In this document: one piece after another, positions 4,182-30,248 of the stretch
Position numbering within the stretch: position 1 is the first letter of the stretch
How the letters are laid out: the number at the start of each line of letters is the position of its first letter
Source of the DNA: Legionellaceae bacterium
GTDB taxonomy: Bacteria > Pseudomonadota > Gammaproteobacteria > Legionellales > Legionellaceae
DNA length: 64,000 bases
NCBI GenBank assembly: GCA_029210085.1
Contig: JARGPP010000013.1
Span: 164,719-228,718 of the forward strand
Reading direction: 5' to 3'
The notes under the pieces: generated by a model
Database searches by the model: none
What the model was told of the DNA's origin: nothing
The model's input: only the letters and a program-made list of their open reading frames with translations
Position numbers and translations under genes: made by a program

Positions 4182-4433
4182 ATGTTTATTTGCTCACCCA
4201 AAGAGCTAGCACTGCTTATTGCAAATCGTAGAAAAAATTTAAAACTCAGCCAAGCTGCCGTGGGTAAATTGGTTGGACTAAAACAACAAACCATTTCAGA
4301 GTTTGAAAAACGCCCTGAGGGTACCAAGCTTGACACTCTTTTTAGAATCTTATCTGCGGTTAAGTTAGACGCAACCGTACTGACAAAAGACGAACAAACT
4401 CCAAAAGAATCACAATGGAATGAAGAATGGTAA
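4182..4433 (+). CDS. hipB: HipB-like antitoxin (XRE-type helix-turn-helix)
   Basis: DNA-binding antitoxin that should hold and neutralise the HipA kinase and repress its own operon. The 83 residues carry a canonical Cro/CI HTH (IANRRKNLKLSQAAVGKLVGLKQQTISEFEKRPEGTKLD split over residues 10-48), in which Q-A-A-V-G-K-L and Q-Q-T-I-S-E-F are the two helices. The C-terminal tail is short. The stop overlaps the hipA ATG by 7 bases. No clear operator palindrome was found in the 65 bases upstream. Confidence 0.9.
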   Translation: MFICSPKELALLIANRRKNLKLSQAAVGKLVGLKQQTISEFEKRPEGTKLDTLFRILSAVKLDATVLTKDEQTPKESQWNEEW

Positions 4434-5770
4434 CTCAAAAAAAAACACGCCAAAGTCTCAATATTCTAATGAATGGCCGACACATTGGATCTCTCAAAAA
4501 AACAGCAGACAATAAACTACACTTTGCCTATGCCGTAAGCTGGCTAGAAACACCTGGTGCACGGCCAATATCGCTTTCTCTCCCTTTACTCAATAACCCC
4601 TTTAAAACAAGCAACGTGCATTCATTTTTTAGCAATTTACTGCCTGATAATCCTAAAATAAAATCGCGTATTCAAACGAAATTTAAGACAAAAAGCAATC
4701 ATACCTTTGACTTACTCACAGCCATCGGAAAAGAATGTACTGGTGCACTACAAATCATTCCAAATCGCATCCCAGTTTTTAAAAAACATATACGATTTGA
4801 AGCCCTAGATGATGTATCCATTGCGACACGTTTGCGCGATATACAAAACTACCCATTGGGTATGGCTCCCAGTCTTGACACGTTTAGGCTTACTCTCTCA
4901 GGATCGCAAGAAAAAGCAGCTTTTTTATATCACAACGATACCTGGGCAAGACCCCGTGATAAAACACCAACCAGTCATATTTTAAAGCTGACACAAGCCA
5001 TACCTAATCAACTCGAAAACGAATGGCTTTGCTTAAAAATTACGGAAGCTTTTGGCTTACCTGTTGCCAAATCTCACTTACTCCATTTTGAAGACATTCA
5101 AACACTTGCGATTAAACGCTTTGACCGAAAATATGCAACCGATAAAAGCTGGTTCATGCGCCTGCCCCAAGAAGATATTTGTCAGGCTCTTGGAATACCA
5201 TCCTCTTTAAAATATACCCAAGATGGAGGTCCAGGCATTAAAAACATCATGCGATTTTTACTCGGCTCTTCAAACCCCATTCATGACAGAGATGTTTTTT
5301 ATTGCAGTCAAATTTTATTTTGGTTACTTGCAGCAACCGATGGCCATGCAAAAAACTTCAGTGTTTTTATTCAGCCTGAAGGGAAATATCACCTTACCCC
5401 ACTGTACGATATTTCATCTAGCTACCCATTGATGGCCAAAAAACTTATGTCTGTTGAAGACATCAAAATGGCAATGCCACTCCATAGCAAGCCAACAGAA
5501 GCTCTCTGGCATCAACTGGAACGTCGGCACTTTTTAGAAACAGCAAAAAGCATTCATTATTCTGTTGAACGTGCTGAAGCCATTCTTGACGATATGCTCG
5601 CACGTGTTGACTCAGTCATAGAGCAAGTGTCTATCAACCTCCCCCTCAACTTTCCTAAAGGCATATCAGAGCCCATTTTTGATGGCATGCAATTTGTCAA
5701 AAATAAACTGCAAACGTCTAAGAAACCATTCGCAACAGCACCCGAAGTAAATGCCGCTCATTCGAGGTAA
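4427..5770 (+). CDS. hipA: HipA-like serine/threonine kinase toxin
   Basis: Type II toxin kinase; in E. coli HipA phosphorylates glutamyl-tRNA synthetase and induces persistence. The 447 residues show the N-terminal couple domain (MNGRHIGSLKKT, then SLSLPLL and FFSNLLPDN, residues 15-80), the HipA core with SGSQEKAAF, the lysine in THILKL, the adenine-side FEDIQTLAIKRFDR segment, the catalytic loop ATDGHAKNFSVF and the metal-binding LYDISS, so the kinase appears intact. The last 53 bases run into the oppositely oriented ygfX-like gene, an unusual tail-to-tail overlap that suggests the module arrived by transfer or that the end has drifted. Confidence 0.93.
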   Translation: MVTQKKTRQSLNILMNGRHIGSLKKTADNKLHFAYAVSWLETPGARPISLSLPLLNNPFKTSNVHSFFSNLLPDNPKIKSRIQTKFKTKSNHTFDLLTAIGKECTGALQIIPNRIPVFKKHIRFEALDDVSIATRLRDIQNYPLGMAPSLDTFRLTLSGSQEKAAFLYHNDTWARPRDKTPTSHILKLTQAIPNQLENEWLCLKITEAFGLPVAKSHLLHFEDIQTLAIKRFDRKYATDKSWFMRLPQEDICQALGIPSSLKYTQDGGPGIKNIMRFLLGSSNPIHDRDVFYCSQILFWLLAATDGHAKNFSVFIQPEGKYHLTPLYDISSSYPLMAKKLMSVEDIKMAMPLHSKPTEALWHQLERRHFLETAKSIHYSVERAEAILDDMLARVDSVIEQVSINLPLNFPKGISEPIFDGMQFVKNKLQTSKKPFATAPEVNAAHSR

Positions 5771-14323: not shown

Positions 14324-14815
14324 ATGAAACCTCTCACACAATTTAAATTTATGTTATGGGCTTTTGGAAAAACAAAAGTTCCTTTAATTAGCTATGTAAA
14401 GCCTAAACTTCTTTTCATTAATGATGAAAAGATTATCATTAAACTTCCCTGCCGTCGGCGTAATAAAAATCACCTAAACTCAATGTACTTTGGTGCATTA
14501 GCTGTCGGTGCTGATCTTGCAGGTGGTTTTCATGGTTTATACCACGCAAAAAAAAGTGGTTTAAATATTTCTTTAGCCTTCAAATCTTTTCAGGCCAATT
14601 TTATACGTCGTCCTGAAGCAGATGTATATTTTGTGAGTCAAATGGGGCAAACAGTACAAACCATGATAGCTGAATCAAAAAAAGAAGGGCATCGTGTTAA
14701 TCGGCCAATTGACGTCAAAGCATATGTCGATTATCCTGATGCACCCCAAGAAGTAGCGAACTTTAGCTTAGAGTTATCTTTAAAAGTGATATCAAAAGCA
14801 CCTGCACATGCTTAG
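14324..14815 (+). CDS. DUF4442-type hotdog-fold protein (thioesterase-like)
   Basis: Cytoplasmic protein of 163 residues resembling the PaaI-like DUF4442 family: early KTKVPLISYVKPKL, then CRRRNKNHLNSMYFGALAVGADLAGGF, where N-H-L-N-S-M-Y-F-G-A is the family signature of the hotdog central helix, and SFQANFIRRPEADVYFV. Members are assumed to be acyl-CoA thioesterases, but the substrate is not evident. It ends tail-to-tail with the kinase gene, overlapping by 4 bases. Confidence 0.8.
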   Translation: MKPLTQFKFMLWAFGKTKVPLISYVKPKLLFINDEKIIIKLPCRRRNKNHLNSMYFGALAVGADLAGGFHGLYHAKKSGLNISLAFKSFQANFIRRPEADVYFVSQMGQTVQTMIAESKKEGHRVNRPIDVKAYVDYPDAPQEVANFSLELSLKVISKAPAHA

Positions 14816-15798
14816 ACACCAAGGGTCCTACTCTCTGGAACACTTATTGGTGCAGATGGCGTGGCTATCGCATCAAAAAACCGTGGATAAGGTACTGTAT
14901 TTGAACGAATACCTTGATGATGAGGTGGCCAAAGATGTGCTGTTCCTGATGGCAGCTTTAAACCATATTCTCTGACTCTGGCCTTATCGTCTAAAAGCAT
15001 CGTGCCAATATCTTTTGTGGTAGGTCGTTTATTGGGGATTTCTGATAAACATGCTTGAATCACAGAGGCTAATAACAAAGAAGTTTCTTGAGGTATCTCA
15101 TAATGAGTACAATCATCTCTTACATATTGTATTAACTCCCGCATCGATAAGTGCTTTATCCAAGGCTCCCTATAAGCTAACTTTTTAGAAACGAGCTCCA
15201 GTAACAACCGTCCAAATGCGTAAATATCTGTATTAACGTCATAAAAATAAACATGACTTCTCATAAGGTATGCATCCATCAGTTCTGGAGCAATGCCTGT
15301 TATAGACCCTAAAAAAGTATTATCATGTTTAGCCTTTGATACAACAGAAAAACCAAAGTCTGATATTTTTGCCATACCTGTGGCTGTTAACAAAATATTT
15401 TCAGGTTTTAAATCTCGATGCAAAATATCTTGCTGATGTAAATAGGTTAGTCCTCTCAATATACCTTCAAAGATTGAACGCGTATTTACCTGATTCAGAC
15501 GTGTCGGATGTTGCGAAATAAAATGCTTTAAAGATTTCCCTGGCATTAATTCTAGCACCAGATAAATATGGTTTGGTTTTTCAATCACTGATAATAAAAG
15601 CACAATATTTGGATGAGCCAATTGAGCATGCAATTTAAATTCAGATTGAACCCAATGATATTCTAATGTACCAACACAGCACGCCACTCTTTTAATCGCA
15701 ACAGAACACCCATCCGCAAGGCCTAATTTCACTTTTGAAAAACTGCCTACCCCTATTGTTGGACCTACAACCTTCAATTGATTAAATTTTACGAGCAT
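14812..15798 (-). CDS. Eukaryotic-type Ser/Thr protein kinase
   Basis: A soluble 328-residue protein that is almost entirely one Hanks-type kinase domain. The glycine loop GVGSFSKVKLG spans residues 16-26, the ATP lysine is in VAIKR (Lys36), the alpha-C Glu about residue 53, the catalytic loop HRDLKPEN at 127-134 (Asp129), DFG at 147-149, and APE at 170-172. All key residues are present, so activity is expected. No membrane segment, PASTA or other sensor domain follows; the last 60 residues are proline-rich and unassigned. This differs from typical bacterial PknB proteins and resembles translocated kinases of intracellular bacteria. That role is inference; no secretion signal can be proven here. 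Confidence 0.9.
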   Translation of the reverse strand: MLVKFNQLKVVGPTIGVGSFSKVKLGLADGCSVAIKRVACCVGTLEYHWVQSEFKLHAQLAHPNIVLLLSVIEKPNHIYLVLELMPGKSLKHFISQHPTRLNQVNTRSIFEGILRGLTYLHQQDILHRDLKPENILLTATGMAKISDFGFSVVSKAKHDNTFLGSITGIAPELMDAYLMRSHVYFYDVNTDIYAFGRLLLELVSKKLAYREPWIKHLSMRELIQYVRDDCTHYEIPQETSLLLASVIQACLSEIPNKRPTTKDIGTMLLDDKARVREYGLKLPSGTAHLWPPHHQGIRSNTVPYPRFFDAIATPSAPISVPESRTLGV

Positions 15799-22588: not shown

Positions 22589-22766
22589 TTCTCACTCCTC
22601 AAAAAATTTAGCTCGTATCATATCGAGATTTAAAGCACACGTAAATCAGATTTATATGCTTAATTTAAATAACAACAGCACAAGAATCAAAAAAAATCAT
22701 ATTGAGTTATAATAAAACATATACTAGCATTATGATAATACCAATAGTAAATTTTTGGATCTTCAT

Positions 22767-24329
22767 ATGTTTAAACTAGACTTAACGGGTAAAAATGGAG
22801 TAAACGCACTGGTCCCTGTTGCACAAAAAGGAAGCGCTGATATCATTCAATTTCAAAAAGACATACAGTCACAGTTGAAAAGCGCCTCTGAAGCACATCC
22901 AACCACACAACATGTACTCCAGCAATTAAATCAAGCCATTGAACTTAATCAAAAACTAGAGGCGTATATTCTTGCTAATACAACAGCTATTGTGAACCCG
23001 TTTAGCAGCTCAGGGCGGGTCGCTTTAGCTGAACAAATAGAATCCATTTTTTTAAAAGTCTCTGATATCGATTTTGACAAAATAAACATAACCGACAAAC
23101 AATCCTACAGTGCGACACAAACACTCTTGAAAATGCTTGAAACTTTTCAGTCTCTTTTTCCTCATCAAATACATGACAAATTGGCTGCGGCCCGCACAAA
23201 ACTAGAAGAAAAAATCAAGCAGTACCAAAAAGAAAATCCAAATGCAGATGAACAAGAAATAGAAGCCGACATAGAGGTCATACCATATGAGCTATCTACC
23301 CCCTTAAACCCCATAAAATCACTGCCTAACCTTCAAGATTACGTCATTAGTGAATTTAAAAATATTGATGAAACCTGTCCTGACAGCCAAAAAATAAAAG
23401 CTCATCAAAGCCTCCAGGCATTCATCAAAGCAAGCGCTGAAAATGAAGGACTTTCAATGGAGGATGGAGTACACTCACTTTCAGAGCTTACAGAAAAAGT
23501 CAGCCAAGGCGCATGGGGTGCTCTTCTTGATTTAATCGGCCCTATTATGCCCACTCAATCATCCGATCAAATAGAGGATGCGTATGATCAAAGCGTGCTT
23601 GAACTGCTCACACAAGTTTCTGATAAAATCATTGAGTTATCCTTTGTTGAATATAATCAGATTAATCAAATTTCTAATTTTAGAACAAGATTGGCGCATT
23701 ACCAATTGCTAAAAAATGTCATTGAAACACAGCATGAAAATTTTCATATACAAAGCGAACAGTCAGAAGCATTACTCAAAACAATCACTGCAGCCATTCA
23801 AAAAGAAGTGCATCCTATTATTACTGAATTTGATCTGCTCACGCGGTCTTTTCAAGAAAAAATTGACGCCCTTGAGAAAAAATCTCGTACTGTTTCTGAT
23901 GCACACGCCCAAGAAACTTACTTACCTGCAATTAATCATGCTAAGACTTTAATCCAAGACTTAAATCAAGCAAAAAAAACGTTCCAAACAACAGGTGATC
24001 TTGCTGCGTTTGAAAGCACAACACAGCAATTGCTGAAAGACTTTCCGGGAAAAGCAGCATTTGAAACGAACCGCTCTCAACCCTGGTTCCAAACCCTTGT
24101 CATCACGCCATTTGAAGCCCTCAAGAAAGGGTTAAATGCAATACTTCAAGCCATAGATGCCCAAATTCATGGCCAAAAAGAAAGCTTGCACACTTTTTTT
24201 CAACCGGCTCAGACAGGCACAAAAAAGAAATTTGAAGCATATCAAGAAGGTCTAAAAAACTTAGGCCATCATGATGAAAATTTAACAAAAGAAGATCAGC
24301 AAGATACAAAAAGACGAAAATTAAAATAG
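22767..24329 (+). CDS. Large helical/coiled-coil protein, member A of a tandem paralog pair
   Basis: 520 residues from the ATG at 22767 (an upstream in-frame TTG at 22755 is weaker). No signal peptide or membrane segment, mostly charged helices, and a Lys/Asp-rich tail (EDQQDTKRRKLK) that looks like a nuclear-localisation-type basic cluster. Shared with the next gene: the NPFSSSGRVALAEQIE...KINITDKQSYSA region (residues about 75-125) and the C-terminal block with SFQEKIDALEKKSR, YLPAINHAKTLIQDL, TTGDLAAFESTTQQLL and PWFQTLVITPFEALKKG. No known family recognised. A secreted effector role is only a hypothesis, based on composition and neighbourhood. Confidence 0.8.
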   Translation: MFKLDLTGKNGVNALVPVAQKGSADIIQFQKDIQSQLKSASEAHPTTQHVLQQLNQAIELNQKLEAYILANTTAIVNPFSSSGRVALAEQIESIFLKVSDIDFDKINITDKQSYSATQTLLKMLETFQSLFPHQIHDKLAAARTKLEEKIKQYQKENPNADEQEIEADIEVIPYELSTPLNPIKSLPNLQDYVISEFKNIDETCPDSQKIKAHQSLQAFIKASAENEGLSMEDGVHSLSELTEKVSQGAWGALLDLIGPIMPTQSSDQIEDAYDQSVLELLTQVSDKIIELSFVEYNQINQISNFRTRLAHYQLLKNVIETQHENFHIQSEQSEALLKTITAAIQKEVHPIITEFDLLTRSFQEKIDALEKKSRTVSDAHAQETYLPAINHAKTLIQDLNQAKKTFQTTGDLAAFESTTQQLLKDFPGKAAFETNRSQPWFQTLVITPFEALKKGLNAILQAIDAQIHGQKESLHTFFQPAQTGTKKKFEAYQEGLKNLGHHDENLTKEDQQDTKRRKLK

Positions 24330-24350
24330 ACCAAATAGTGAATATGATCC

Positions 24351-25550
24351 ATGATATTAAAAATTTCTGAATTAAAACACCTCGCATCAGTTGCACCTGA
24401 AGGCTATAAAAAAATAAAAAGCCTTAGAGATGAACTGCTGCAACTCAAAGGCACACTAGACGATACTGACTCAGTTGATATTCAAGAAAAAAAAACCATC
24501 CAATACATGCTCGACGAACTAGAGCAGGCTGTCATTACACTCAAAACCATCAAAAAATTTGTTGTCTCCCATAAACTTGCGCTCACCAACCCCATGAACG
24601 ATAAAACACGTGCCCAATTGACAACAATGCTAGAGCATCATTTAAGTGAAGCCAGTAAGATTGATTTCAAGCAAATTAACATTGCTGGAGCAAACAGTTA
24701 TATTGCGGCACAAGCTCTCTTAAGCCTATTTGATACGCTCAACACATTACTGCCTCATGATGACATCAAATACACACGCAAAACATTAAACCAGAAAATA
24801 GCTCATTTTCAGAAAAAAAATGCTGATATTATTTCACCCGCCTCTATCACGAACTTTTTAGAACTCAATCAGTATATAAAACATGCACTTCAAGCTATAT
24901 CTATAGAAACTGAAGGCCATGTCAAATTTGAACACTATCAAGCGCTCAAATTATTCACCCAAGAAAAAAGTGAAGCACTGCTCATCCAATCAATCCAGAA
25001 AAAATCAATCAGCCAAAAAGATTATGGCGAAACCTTTCAATTGCTGGATAAAATGACATTAAAAATAGCCCATGAAAAAAATGACATCATCAAAAAGTTT
25101 GATATGCTCACAGAGACTTTTAGTCAAAAAATTGATGAGCTACGCACCAGAAGCACATCAACACATGCCATGCACTCAAAAAAAACATATAAACCAGCTA
25201 TTCAACATGCTGAAAAGCTACTTCAGGATTTAAAAAAAGCAAAAAATAAATTTCGACAATCAGGAAACTTACCTTGTTTTCAAAAAACCATACACAAACT
25301 ACTGTCTCAATTTGAAGGAGAGCGTTTCTTCAAAATACATCGCTCAGTACAATGGTTTCAAGATTATATCCAAAAACCTTTTGAGCAATTTAAAAAAGAA
25401 ATGAACTTCTTAATCGATTTTTTTAACATTAACATAGAACACTTTGAACCTGCCAAAACCAATACAACCGAGATATTCGAAGCCTACAAAAATAACATCG
25501 AAAATTTAATAGAAGAGCAAGCGCCCCCAACCCCTCATCACTCTAAATAA
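24351..25550 (+). CDS. Helical/coiled-coil protein, member B of a tandem paralog pair
   Basis: 399 residues starting 21 bases after the preceding gene, so probably cotranscribed. It aligns with member A over two blocks: TNPMNDKTRAQLTTMLEHHL...QINIAGANSYIAAQALL near the N-terminus, and TFSQKIDELRTRSTS, YKPAIQHAEKLLQDLKKAK, QSGNLPCFQKTIHKLL and VQWFQDYIQKPFEQFKKE near the C-terminus. The middle of A, about 120 residues, is missing here. Soluble, Lys-rich and helical, with no recognised family. The pair looks like a gene duplication with internal length change. Confidence 0.8.
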   Translation: MILKISELKHLASVAPEGYKKIKSLRDELLQLKGTLDDTDSVDIQEKKTIQYMLDELEQAVITLKTIKKFVVSHKLALTNPMNDKTRAQLTTMLEHHLSEASKIDFKQINIAGANSYIAAQALLSLFDTLNTLLPHDDIKYTRKTLNQKIAHFQKKNADIISPASITNFLELNQYIKHALQAISIETEGHVKFEHYQALKLFTQEKSEALLIQSIQKKSISQKDYGETFQLLDKMTLKIAHEKNDIIKKFDMLTETFSQKIDELRTRSTSTHAMHSKKTYKPAIQHAEKLLQDLKKAKNKFRQSGNLPCFQKTIHKLLSQFEGERFFKIHRSVQWFQDYIQKPFEQFKKEMNFLIDFFNINIEHFEPAKTNTTEIFEAYKNNIENLIEEQAPPTPHHSK

Positions 25551-27233: not shown

Positions 27234-27334
27234 ATAACAATTTTACACCCATAAAAAATATAAAGTATATATATTGAACTTCATGGATATTTAAAGTATA
27301 GTTTGTCTTTGGCTTTTTTAATATAAAAATCATT

Positions 27335-28708
27335 ATGCTATCCAGTGCTTTCTTCGGTACGTCTTCTTATTTGGCGAAAAAAAAACAACACACACCCGAG
27401 TCATTCACTTATGACCGTTTCATTCCTCAACGTAGAAGAAACTCATCTGATTCTCCCCTAGATTACAAAAAAAACACCGTTGCACAAACAATGTATGAGC
27501 AGCTTATTCAAGACAATCTTAGAGATCCGAATGACAATCGAGTGCTTCTCTTCTCTCCACTCAAAGAACAGCAGCCTTATCAGATGCTTAAAGTATCTTT
27601 CAATCAACCCCAAAAAACAAAACCATCCCCTCCTAAGTTACATTTTCAAGCAGGAAGAATCATGGATGCACCGGGTACATTAGACGATTTTTATTCTAAT
27701 ACGCTTGCCTGCACACATGATCAAGTGATTGTTAGCTTAAATGAAGTGGACAATCGTTCTAATTTACCCTTTAGCCGCATTTATAATACATCTGCATTAA
27801 ATCTAGCAACAAATACACCTTATCGTATTGCCTCGACTGAACCTACTGCATTTGGAACAACCGTTCGTGCTATCAGCCCAATGACTCAAACAGATATTGT
27901 GTCTGGCTGGAGTGATGGTTTTCTGCGCATACATAATTTAGAAAGATTAACTTATTATCGAACATTTCACACACAAGAGGCTTCAGCTATATCTACCATA
28001 CAATCACTCACCGCATTCACTTTTGTTTGCGGAGATTTCATGGGAAACTTACGATTAATTGACTTAAGATCTCAACAAGCTGCTGTAACAATTCATATAA
28101 GTGCACACAGAGAAAAAGTGTCTGGTCTCGCATATAATAATGAATTTAACATCGCAAGTGGTTCAAATGATAACACCGTTAAACTATGGGATATTCGCCA
28201 CTTAAACAGGACTGAATTACTCTCTCACCAAGGGCATTCAGCAGGCATAAAAGCTTTAAGTTTTTACGGCACTCACCACCTCCTTTCCGGTGGTGGCACG
28301 GCTTGCAAAAAGATTTGCCTATTTAACACACAATTAAATGTTATTTCAAATACAAAAATGACGCATGGGCAAATCACAGGTATTCAACATTTACAAGATC
28401 CCCGCTACATTGTAACCAGTCACGGATATGGTCAAAATACACTTAATTTATGGTACGTATCTAAAAAAAATCAGATTGTAGCCGTATCTAAAACATCAGC
28501 AGATACAATCCAAAGAGATCCTGAAAGCCCTACAAACGGGCGATTTATATCACTTATTGCATCTCCAACTCAAGATACACTTGTAGCACTTAAAACAGAT
28601 GAAACACTCCGTTTTTTTGATATCAGTCATAAAAGGCAGAAGGGCATGAGCAAGAAAACAACGTTTTTGCCACAAGAAATGCTACCCAATTCTCCAACCA
28701 TTCGTTAA
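27335..28708 (+). CDS. WD40 protein resembling the APC/C coactivators Cdh1/Cdc20
   Basis: 457 residues. It reproduces the layout of eukaryotic Fizzy/Cdc20 and Fizzy-related/Cdh1 proteins. Residues 27-33 are DRFIPQR, the C-box (consensus DR[FY]IPxR). A Y..L..DNL segment stands at 54-62, where Cdh1 has Y..LL.NELL. Residues 108-120 are RIMDAPGTLDDFY, against KVLDAPELQDDFY in Cdh1. A WD40 propeller follows, with KVSGLAYN, ASGSNDNTVKLWDIR, HSAGIKALSF, LLSGGGTACKKICLFNT (Cdh1: LLASGGGTADRCIRFWNT), IVTSHGYGQNTLNLW (Cdh1: LVSTHGYSQNQILVW) and KTDETLRFFDI. The protein ends in Ile-Arg, like the IR tail that docks on APC3. No signal peptide or membrane helix. Likely acquired from a host; target and activity are inferred. 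Confidence 0.9.
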   Translation: MLSSAFFGTSSYLAKKKQHTPESFTYDRFIPQRRRNSSDSPLDYKKNTVAQTMYEQLIQDNLRDPNDNRVLLFSPLKEQQPYQMLKVSFNQPQKTKPSPPKLHFQAGRIMDAPGTLDDFYSNTLACTHDQVIVSLNEVDNRSNLPFSRIYNTSALNLATNTPYRIASTEPTAFGTTVRAISPMTQTDIVSGWSDGFLRIHNLERLTYYRTFHTQEASAISTIQSLTAFTFVCGDFMGNLRLIDLRSQQAAVTIHISAHREKVSGLAYNNEFNIASGSNDNTVKLWDIRHLNRTELLSHQGHSAGIKALSFYGTHHLLSGGGTACKKICLFNTQLNVISNTKMTHGQITGIQHLQDPRYIVTSHGYGQNTLNLWYVSKKNQIVAVSKTSADTIQRDPESPTNGRFISLIASPTQDTLVALKTDETLRFFDISHKRQKGMSKKTTFLPQEMLPNSPTIR

Positions 28709-28794
28709 CTTTTATGATAAAAACACGCGTATCACTTGCAAATCTTTGGCAAATAGATACCATGTGAAGAAGTTAATATTTGCTTAGGAAACCT

Positions 28795-29433
28795 GTGAGA
28801 CTAACCCTTATTGCTTGCGTGTTACTCCTCACCACAGTAGCTGCTAAAGCAGCCATTCCGATTGATGGCTGGTATTCTAGTGCTTTTGGCGGTTACGCCT
28901 ATCTTCCTAATAATATCAATAAAACACATGATGGAATTACCTATACAGATGCAAACTATGAGTCTGAATATAACGCTGGAGGGAGCTTTGGTTATAAAAG
29001 CAATCCAATGCGTTATGAAGGCCAAGTGACTTACATCAGTGCCATGCTCAATCACGTCTATGAAAACGGTACTCGCGACCCACGTGTTGCAGGCTATAAT
29101 AATGCAGTGATTGGCCTTGCCAATGTTTACTATGACTTTCCTATGATTATCCCTGCTATTTCTCCATTTTTAGGAGCAGGGCTTGGATACGGCTGGATTA
29201 ACGTAAAAGTCGATAACTCACGTCTAGATATCACTGATTTTCGAGTAGCTGACAGTGCTTTTGCCTATCAAGGTACTGCTGGTATTACCTTCAATTTTTC
29301 AGAAAACTATGCCATTAATGTTGCCTACCGCTATATCGGAACGAACACTGTTTTCAAACTGGGTAAATCATTCCAAGCCCATCTTGCAAACTTTGGTATT
29401 ATTTACCGTTATGATGAGGCAAAATACAAATAA
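28795..29433 (+). CDS. Outer-membrane beta-barrel protein
   Basis: 212 residues from GTG at 28795, chosen because an AGGAAA ribosome site precedes it and the signal peptide (RLTLIACVLLLTTVAAKA) begins there; an in-frame TTG at 28780 is less likely. The mature part alternates aromatic and polar residues (GWYSSAFGGYAYLPNN, GLANVYYDFP, ISPFLGAGLGYGWINVKVD, YAINVAYRYIG) and ends near an aromatic residue (IIYRYDEAKYK), as in 8-stranded OmpA/porin-like barrels. It has no peptidoglycan-binding domain. It and the next gene form a tandem pair of small barrels. Confidence 0.85.
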   Translation: MRLTLIACVLLLTTVAAKAAIPIDGWYSSAFGGYAYLPNNINKTHDGITYTDANYESEYNAGGSFGYKSNPMRYEGQVTYISAMLNHVYENGTRDPRVAGYNNAVIGLANVYYDFPMIIPAISPFLGAGLGYGWINVKVDNSRLDITDFRVADSAFAYQGTAGITFNFSENYAINVAYRYIGTNTVFKLGKSFQAHLANFGIIYRYDEAKYK

Positions 29434-29474
29434 AAAATAGTCACTTAAAGAATGATAACTAAGGACAGTCTGTC

Positions 29475-30248
29475 ATGAAATGGTTTCTAAAAACCTTACT
29501 TACAAGCCTTACCCTTACCACAAGTACACTCCATGCCTTTAATCCACAACCTGATTGGTATGCAGGTCTTATTGTCGGTGCAAACTATGTTGGCAATGTA
29601 AAATTCACGTATGTAAACGATGTCAGCGCTGCTAACCCATCTGGTATCAAAAGACCCGGGCAGCTAGGTCACGACATTATGGGAAGTATTGGTGGACAAG
29701 TTGGTTATCGATTCTGTGACAATTTTCGTGTTGAATTTGAGGGTATTTATAACAACAGTCCTTACAGTTACTTACGTCTCAATGATGTCACCATTCATAG
29801 CCCTGACACCAGCACAGCGCTTCGAATATCAGGGGTCACTCAATCAGGTGTGGGTACATTTAACTTTCTGTATGATTTTTTTGGAGATTATTCCTCTAAA
29901 GCTGTGCCCTACTTAGGAGCTGGCATTGGGTTTGCTTATATAGCAAATAAAATTGAGTTTTATTATAACGATGTACGCTTAGGCGATGGATTTAAAGAGC
30001 GTGTCCAAGATCGCTTTGGCATCACTCCAAGCGATAAAAGCCGATCGGGTATTGTTGGACAAGCCATTGCGGGTATTAGTTATTATCTAGATGACTATGC
30101 TTACTTTGCTTTAGATGGGCGTTATCTGGTTTCACAAGAGCAAACCATTATTGCGCGTCAGACCAAACGGGTGACCAATCAATTTGATGCAAAATATCAA
30201 ATGTATAGTGTCAACCTTGTCTTTAACAGCGCCTTTGACTGTAGTTAA
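29475..30248 (+). CDS. Outer-membrane beta-barrel protein (second of pair)
   Basis: 257 residues. Signal peptide MKWFLKTLLTSLTLTTSTLHA, then DWYAGLIVGANYVGNVKFTYV, IGGQVGYRFCDNFRVEFEGIYN, KAVPYLGAGIGFAYI, IVGQAIAGISYYLDDYAYFALDGRYL and a closing strand YSVNLVFNSAFDCS. PYLGAGIG is the common strand motif of small surface-antigen barrels. It shares only general barrel features with the preceding protein. Long polar loops, for instance residues 60-120, would be surface-exposed. Confidence 0.87.
   Translation: MKWFLKTLLTSLTLTTSTLHAFNPQPDWYAGLIVGANYVGNVKFTYVNDVSAANPSGIKRPGQLGHDIMGSIGGQVGYRFCDNFRVEFEGIYNNSPYSYLRLNDVTIHSPDTSTALRISGVTQSGVGTFNFLYDFFGDYSSKAVPYLGAGIGFAYIANKIEFYYNDVRLGDGFKERVQDRFGITPSDKSRSGIVGQAIAGISYYLDDYAYFALDGRYLVSQEQTIIARQTKRVTNQFDAKYQMYSVNLVFNSAFDCS

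What the first reader, a model, noticed from the sequence alone, without database searches (positions are those of the whole stretch)
27335..28708. Bacterial mimic of the APC/C coactivators Cdh1/Cdc20, complete with C-box and IR tail
Seen directly: C-box DRFIPQR at residues 27-33, the RIMDAPGTLDDFY signature just before the propeller, WD40 blades with LLSGGGTACKKICLFNT, TSHGYGQNTLNLW and KTDETLRFF that follow Cdh1 motif by motif, and Ile-Arg as the last two residues. Known: in eukaryotes the C-box and IR tail are the two elements that dock the coactivator on the anaphase-promoting complex (Cdc20/Fizzy and Cdh1/Fizzy-related family). Inference: the bacterium acquired a host coactivator and may inject it to redirect APC/C ubiquitination or to stall or advance the host cell cycle. 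A generic bacterial WD40 protein would not keep all four non-propeller elements.
Basis: partly seen in the sequence, partly recalled or inferred. Interest (0 to 1): 0.96.

Follow-up and report, generated by a model that had tools for sequence, protein, structure and literature searches.

The report
Bacterial mimic of APC/C coactivator Cdc20
A relative of Legionella carries a gene whose protein has the propeller, the docking motifs and the substrate-gripping residues of Cdc20 and Cdh1, the proteins that switch on the cell-division ubiquitin ligase APC/C in eukaryotes, and it is predicted to be injected into host cells to steer that ligase.

Summary
In detail: ORF 27335-28708 (457 aa) carries C-box DRFIPQR, a predicted WD40 propeller and a terminal Ile-Arg. 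Its best Pfam match is the CDC20/Fizzy domain (E 2.7e-45; 155 bits, below the curated 200). In the PDB fold search, ranks 1-28 are APC/C coactivators. Twenty distinct bacterial-type proteins, 13 traced to the window's family (Legionellaceae), form one clade joined to eukaryotic coactivators. Thirteen (group A, with the window) keep D-box and KEN-box receptor residues at 95% identity to human CDC20, against 25% over the domain; 29 generic WD40 proteins match 1.07 of these 10 sites on average. Seven (group B) keep the IR tail but have mostly lost the KEN-binding asparagines. In the window's genus the gene sits at one site, 31-38% identical while conserved neighbours stay at 55-94%; two species lack it cleanly. 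The genome has a Dot/Icm operon. Best reading: a host-directed APC/C coactivator mimic, Cdc20-like or Cdh1-like unresolved. APC/C binding, activation and injection were not tested. The listed searches showed no earlier report.

The parts
27335..28708 (+). coactivator-like gene, 457 aa, ATG start, stop included
27274..27302 (+). promoter-like site TTGAAC-17-TATAGT upstream of the gene (consensus match only; 3 sites found in the region against 5.3 expected by shuffling, so not above chance)
27413..27433 (+). C-box DRFIPQR, residues 27-33 (in eukaryotes docks on Apc8B)
   Evidence: role from PMC5717348 passages
27539..27559 (+). RVLLFSP, residues 69-75: lines up with the KILR / Mad2-interaction motif of Cdc20
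   Evidence: 12 of 13 group A proteins hold [KR]-hydrophobic-hydrophobic-x-[FLY] there; motif from PMC9357983 and PMC5717348 passages
27632..28630 (+). WD40 propeller, residues 100-432, pLDDT mostly over 90 (seven-bladed by its match to Cdc20)
27665..27667 (+). D-box receptor residue Asp111 (human CDC20 Asp177)
   Evidence: role from PMC12401543 passage
27686..27694 (+). KEN receptor residues Asp118-Phe119-Tyr120 (human CDC20 184-186)
   Evidence: role from PMC9357983 passages
28166..28174 (+). KEN receptor residues Asn278 and Asn280 (human CDC20 329, 331)
   Evidence: role from PMC9926468 and PMC9357983 passages
28295..28300 (+). KEN receptor residues Gly321-Thr322 (human CDC20 376-377)
   Evidence: role from PMC9926468 passage
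28370..28372 (+). KEN receptor residue Gln346 (human CDC20 401)
   Evidence: role
28541..28543 (+). KEN receptor residue Arg403 (human CDC20 445)
   Evidence: role
28601..28603 (+). D-box receptor residue Glu423 (human CDC20 465)
   Evidence: role
28700..28705 (+). terminal Ile456-Arg457, IR tail (in eukaryotes docks on Apc3)
   Evidence: role from PMC5717348 passages

Best explanation
The protein is a bacterial homologue of the eukaryotic APC/C coactivators (Cdc20/Cdh1, Fizzy family) that would, after likely Dot/Icm injection, dock on the host APC/C through its C-box and Ile-Arg tail and load D-box and KEN-box proteins for ubiquitination. Shown: homology, predicted fold, both docking motifs, the degron-receptor residues, their selective conservation while the rest of the propeller has drifted, and a Dot/Icm operon in the genome. 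Inferred: acquisition from a eukaryote (probably a protist host), injection, Apc3/Apc8 binding, and unscheduled or redirected destruction of APC/C substrates in the host, which would shift or hold its cell cycle. In the divergent group B relatives the IR tail and the C-box arginine persist while the KEN receptor has decayed, so those would act as altered-specificity coactivators or as plugs.
Against: The Pfam score (155) is under the curated cut-off (200). The fold lead is clear at the top but narrow at its end: Foldseek rank 28 has E 8.7e-17, the next (ribosomal, RACK1-type) chain 1.2e-16. The N- and C-terminal ends are predicted disordered (pLDDT under 50), so docking was not modelled. No complex was predicted, no translocation signal was tested, and the last 30 residues show no obvious acidic block by eye. 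Two of 13 group A proteins end LR or GR. The proline spacing of the Mad2 motif is not kept in the window. The donor lineage is not resolved and the bacterial stem is long. Seven of the 20 proteins come from records whose organism I did not trace, four of them on contigs under 10 kb.
Confidence: 0.75

Rival explanations
1. A plug rather than an activator: it occupies the Apc3 and Apc8 sites (and perhaps degrons) without productive substrate delivery, so it would inhibit the host APC/C.
For: Docking elements persist even where the degron receptor has decayed: group B IR 7 of 7, C-box arginine 7 of 7, degron sites 51% identical and no better than other conserved columns (P 0.25). [quoted passage not shown]
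Against: In group A, with the window, the D-box and KEN receptor sites are far better kept than other eukaryote-conserved columns; a mere plug would not need them.
Confidence: 0.15
2. A Mad2 sponge or checkpoint decoy: the RVLLF motif binds Mad2-type proteins and releases or blocks the spindle checkpoint, the APC/C docking being secondary.
For: RVLLF lines up with KILR/MIM; the pattern is present in 12 of 13 group A proteins.
Against: The proline position given for AtCDC20.1 (PMC9357983 passages) is not kept in the window; the KILR motif also augments the C-box contact (PMC5717348 passages), so its conservation has another reason.
Confidence: 0.04
3. A bacterial WD40 scaffold of ordinary kind that converged on coactivator-like motifs and works inside the bacterium.
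For: WD40 proteins occur in bacteria; injection is not shown.
Against: 29 generic WD40 proteins match on average 1.07 of 10 receptor sites and none ends in IR; 44 non-member loci of the genome scan: none ends in IR or holds a C-box; tree support 99/99; the site is empty in two species of the genus.
Confidence: 0.03
4. Eukaryotic DNA misassembled into the bacterial genome.
For: Eukaryote-like protein; close relatives are metagenome assemblies.
Against: Uninterrupted gene inside a 228,718-base contig with bacterial neighbours, base composition within the range of its neighbours, same site in three other assemblies.
Confidence: 0.01

Closest known systems
Cdc20/Slp1 and Cdh1 (Fizzy / Fizzy-related) APC/C coactivators
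   Same: C-box, MIM/KILR-like motif, WD40 propeller, D-box and KEN receptor residues, IR tail, in the same order.
   Different: Encoded by a bacterium; about 25% identical over the propeller (group A mean); 28 of 69 eukaryote-conserved propeller columns are kept in under half of group A; no KEN motif of its own in the window.
Legionella F-box effectors such as AnkB
   Same: Idea: a bacterial protein acts as the substrate receptor of a host cullin-RING ligase (PMC7830128 passages).
   Different: They plug into SCF through Skp1 with an F-box; this would plug into the APC/C through C-box and IR tail. No F-box match was found in this genome.
The effector that targets Mad2L2, an APC inhibitor (IpaB of Shigella, name recalled)
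   Same: A bacterial effector that changes host APC/C activity (title of Iwai et al. 2007 seen in the reference list of PMC7279228; the rest recalled).
   Different: Acts on a regulator; not a coactivator homologue (recalled).

Membership tests
Fizzy/Cdc20-Cdh1 coactivators | CDC20/Fizzy propeller as best profile over its full length | tested here: met
   PF24807 positions 1-292, E 2.7e-45, next family 64 bits
Fizzy/Cdc20-Cdh1 coactivators | Pfam curated score (200 bits), a curation limit rather than a biological trait | tested here: not met
   155.4 bits; 8 other members scanned 126-171 bits. So it is filed as a divergent homologue outside the curated boundary.
Fizzy/Cdc20-Cdh1 coactivators | Propeller fold closest to solved coactivators | tested here: met
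   Foldseek ranks 1-28 and VIA ranks 1-17 are coactivators; group B model likewise (there VIA rank 17 and 18 are within 1 Z)
Fizzy/Cdc20-Cdh1 coactivators | N-terminal C-box DR[F/Y]IPxR | tested here: met
   Window DRFIPQR; strict pattern 10 of 12 group A proteins with an N-terminus, relaxed 12 of 12; group B strict 2 of 7
Fizzy/Cdc20-Cdh1 coactivators | C-terminal Ile-Arg | tested here: met
   Window IR; 18 of 20 IR, one LR, one GR; last residue R 20 of 20
Fizzy/Cdc20-Cdh1 coactivators | D-box and KEN-box receptor residues | tested here: met
   Window 10 of 10; 10 of 13 group A proteins have all ten, the other three have eight; group B mean 51%, so not met there
Fizzy/Cdc20-Cdh1 coactivators | Common descent with eukaryotic coactivators to the exclusion of other WD40 proteins | tested here: met
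   99/99 for bacterial plus eukaryotic coactivators against 9 generic rows; the generic rows have long branches
Fizzy/Cdc20-Cdh1 coactivators | Binds and activates the APC/C | not testable with these tools
   needs protein work
Cdc20 versus Cdh1 subfamily | Groups with one of the two in a tree | tested here: inconclusive
Dot/Icm-injected effectors | Dot/Icm system in the same genome | tested here: met
Dot/Icm-injected effectors | C-terminal translocation signal and actual transfer | not tested
   no predictor at hand; transfer assay referred

The most novel reading that the evidence does not exclude
Legionellaceae own an old family of APC/C coactivators of their own. One branch keeps the full degron receptor and would hand host proteins (or new targets) to the host's APC/C; the other keeps the docking ends but has dissolved the KEN receptor, turning the coactivator into a plug or a retargeted receptor. 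It would be the first bacterial family known to me that takes over the APC/C by replacing its substrate receptor.
Probability: 0.6. Interest if true: 0.94.

Novelty: new variant of a known kind. Interest (0 to 1): 0.88.

Why it matters
Bacterial effectors that pose as substrate receptors of SCF ligases are known; a bacterial homologue of the APC/C coactivators with docking ends and degron receptor intact is, as far as the searches here reach, not described. If it works as read, an intracellular bacterium can set the host's cell-cycle clock by swapping the coactivator itself. The natural divergence of the family (receptor kept in group A, decayed in group B) is also a ready-made experiment on which parts of a coactivator serve docking and which serve substrate choice.

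Tried and rejected
Contamination: rejected by synteny and composition. Generic WD40 convergence: rejected by the site control and tree. Giant-virus route: one scan of viral contigs with the A2 profile gave 21 pattern stretches and no relative; this does not exclude it. Spread outside the family: of 369 genomes of the class, 30 matched at E 1e-6, 29 of them other than the window's own; the listed places are partial matches, most in larger WD40 frames (at most 4 candidates per genome were scored, and no ends were inspected). The genome-contig scan returned 47 loci, of which L002-L004 are members; the other 44 (mostly Streptomyces, E 3e-9 or weaker, some spanning most of the query at 20-25% identity) were read in the frame of the match: none ends in IR, none holds a C-box. 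Other APC/C mimicry in the genome: no ANAPC10 match, but no control genome rang either, so this shows nothing; no F-box match. Cdc20 or Cdh1 origin: left open. NCBIfam gave no family for the window protein. Regulation: one promoter-like match upstream, not above chance; no terminator-like site. A cyclomodulin review held none of the terms APC, Mad2L2, Cdh1, Cdc20 (PMC5440457, term search).

Rows dropped: of 23 order genomes with a match, 13 hold a full coactivator-like ORF and one (G086) an interrupted one; 9 were left out. The generic control used 29 rows picked by me from the hit lists, the tree 9 of those 29. P0007 has no N-terminus in its record and is left out of C-box counts. L061 is in the counts and tree but not in alignment A3.

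Full report
What is there. The strongest Pfam family is the CDC20/Fizzy WD40 domain, E 2.7e-45 over profile positions 1-292, 155 bits against 64 for the next family; the curated cut-off of 200 bits is not reached. In a sequence search of the PDB the best end-to-end match is S. pombe Slp1 (Cdc20), query residues 27-410, E 4.8e-23; four highly repetitive WD40 proteins rank higher through many summed short hits.

Family. Database and genome searches gave 20 distinct proteins: the window, P0002-P0010, and L052-L061. In the order of the window's genome, 23 of 143 genomes match; 13 hold a full coactivator-like ORF, one an interrupted copy, 9 were left out. Thirteen of the 20 proteins (window, P0002, P0004, L052-L061) are traced to genomes of the window's family; that family is Legionellaceae by the record titles of L002 and L004, which are the genomes G032 and G033. 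One group B member is held by NCBI as a 'Legionella sp.' MAG protein (P0063, identical to L058). The other seven (P0003, P0005-P0010) were not traced to an organism; the tree puts them inside group A. In 369 genomes of the class no full-length member was listed besides the window's.

Docking ends. Group A (13 proteins): relaxed C-box 12 of 12 with an N-terminus, strict 10 of 12; last residue R 13 of 13, IR 11 of 13 (LR in P0005, GR in P0008). Group B (7 proteins): IR 7 of 7, C-box arginine 7 of 7, but the aromatic residue is Glu or Asp in 4 of 7 and the strict C-box is met by 2 of 7. By PMC5717348 (passages seen) the C-box docks on Apc8B, the IR tail on Apc3A, and KILR augments the C-box. The RVLLF segment aligns with KILR and with the Mad2-interaction motif given for AtCDC20.1 (PMC9357983 passages); the pattern is in 12 of 13 group A proteins.

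Degron receptor. Sites were taken from passages of PMC12401543 (Asp177, Glu465), PMC9357983 (Asp184-Tyr186 and the Arabidopsis KEN set) and PMC9926468 (Cdh1 KEN set, from simulation) and mapped by my alignment; the CDC20 numbers of the two asparagines were first recalled and then agreed with the alignment. The window matches human CDC20 at 10 of 10 sites. Group A averages 95.4% there against 25.2% over all WD40 columns. Against a fairer background, columns at least 90% conserved in the eukaryotic rows (69 columns, 9 of them degron sites), retention is 95.7% for degron sites and 50.6% for the other 60; a random draw did as well in 1 of 20,000. Group B: 55.6% against 44.8%, P 0.25; the two KEN-binding asparagines are kept in 2 of 7 and 1 of 7, the glutamine in 4 of 7, the arginine in 3 of 7, the D-box glutamate in 5 of 7. 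Twenty-nine generic WD40 proteins average 1.07 of 10, highest 3; none ends in IR and one (P0020) holds a C-box-like string.

Descent. A maximum-likelihood tree of the propeller (50 rows, 312 columns) has the 20 proteins as one clade (99/96), groups A (100/99) and B (100/100) within it, joined to the 21 eukaryotic coactivators away from 9 generic WD40 rows (99/99). The eukaryotic rows form their own side (95/97), so the donor is not placed; long generic branches are a caution.

Locus. The gene lies between a NAD synthetase gene and two outer-membrane barrel genes (gene names by eye; barrels have weak model matches). In L002 the same neighbours flank it; in L004 likewise, with one extra ORF before the barrels; L003 ends just after it, behind the same upstream gene. 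There it is 38%, 37% and 31% identical to the window's, while the conserved neighbours (Sec, NAD synthetase, barrel, epimerase and other genes with a counterpart in the window) are 55-94% identical; the ORF family upstream of the NAD synthetase gene (22755-25550) is itself fast, at 27-40%. In G028 and G029 the NAD synthetase and barrel genes are adjacent with no ORF of 100 aa between; in G031 two ORFs of unknown kind sit there. So the gene is an accessory, fast-changing cargo at a fixed site whose docking and receptor residues stand still, which is what one expects of a protein that must fit a conserved eukaryotic partner (inference). Base composition is within the range of the neighbours. It is the one WD40 match found in the genome.

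Delivery. The genome carries DotI and DotH (0 of 14 control genomes ring) in an operon with DotM, a coupling-type protein (best model TrbC, 381 bits under its 800 cut-off), a DotK-like protein (226 bits, under its 250 cut-off), DotJ, DotG and DotF. No transfer signal was tested.

Mechanism. Most likely the protein is injected and acts as an extra coactivator: IR tail on Apc3, C-box on Apc8, D-box/KEN receptor offering substrates, giving unscheduled APC/C activity. The conserved receptor in group A speaks for delivery of substrates, not mere blocking. In group B, docking ends without the KEN asparagines suggest a plug or a changed target. Every step after homology and residue conservation is inference.

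Prior knowledge. Searches of the open-access library (listings seen, showing 10 of 30 papers) showed no report of a bacterial Cdc20/Cdh1 homologue. Term searches inside an atlas of 368 L. pneumophila effectors (PMC11696984: no WD40, propeller, anaphase or Cdc20 in the main text), two Legionella ubiquitin reviews (PMC7830128, PMC5770618; WD40 only for F-box proteins of hosts), a 2026 review (PMC12960579) and an effector-RNA screen (PMC5570926: WD40 only for the cyclophilin-like Lpg1962) found none. One review says that WD40-repeat proteins occur in Legionellaceae, with no word of Cdc20 or anaphase (PMC11323580, passage). A phylogenomic study of the APC/C (PMC3195147, passages) puts Cdc20 and Cdh1 in the eukaryotic ancestor. 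Subscription journals are not held, so an unseen report is possible.

Noticed in passing
window 14812-15798 (-): 328-aa eukaryotic-type Ser/Thr protein kinase (Pfam Pkinase 4.5e-51; best PDB match AMPK alpha-2, E 7e-26), a possible second host-directed protein.
   Followed up: partly
window 22755-25550 (+): Two ORFs of a fast-evolving family without a Pfam match above cut-off, in varying copy number at the same place in relatives (two in L002, four in L003), 24-40% identical.
   Followed up: partly
L098 7763-10543; L004 11409-12413: Unknown ORFs at or beside the coactivator site in relatives, no Pfam match; the site looks like a spot for exchangeable cargo.
   Followed up: no
L101 (G117:C3:163800-166000): A Legionellaceae WD40 frame of 409 aa with, by eye, an F-box at its start and no C-box or IR tail: possibly a parallel mimic of SCF receptors.
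   Followed up: partly
L062 (G086): A copy of the coactivator-like gene interrupted by a stop codon in a 3.7-Mb genome of the same family; described only.
   Followed up: no
window 28780-30248 (+): Two outer-membrane barrel genes with weak, below-cut-off matches to the adhesin Adr model.
   Followed up: no
window 4427-5770 (+): HipA-type kinase gene.
   Followed up: no
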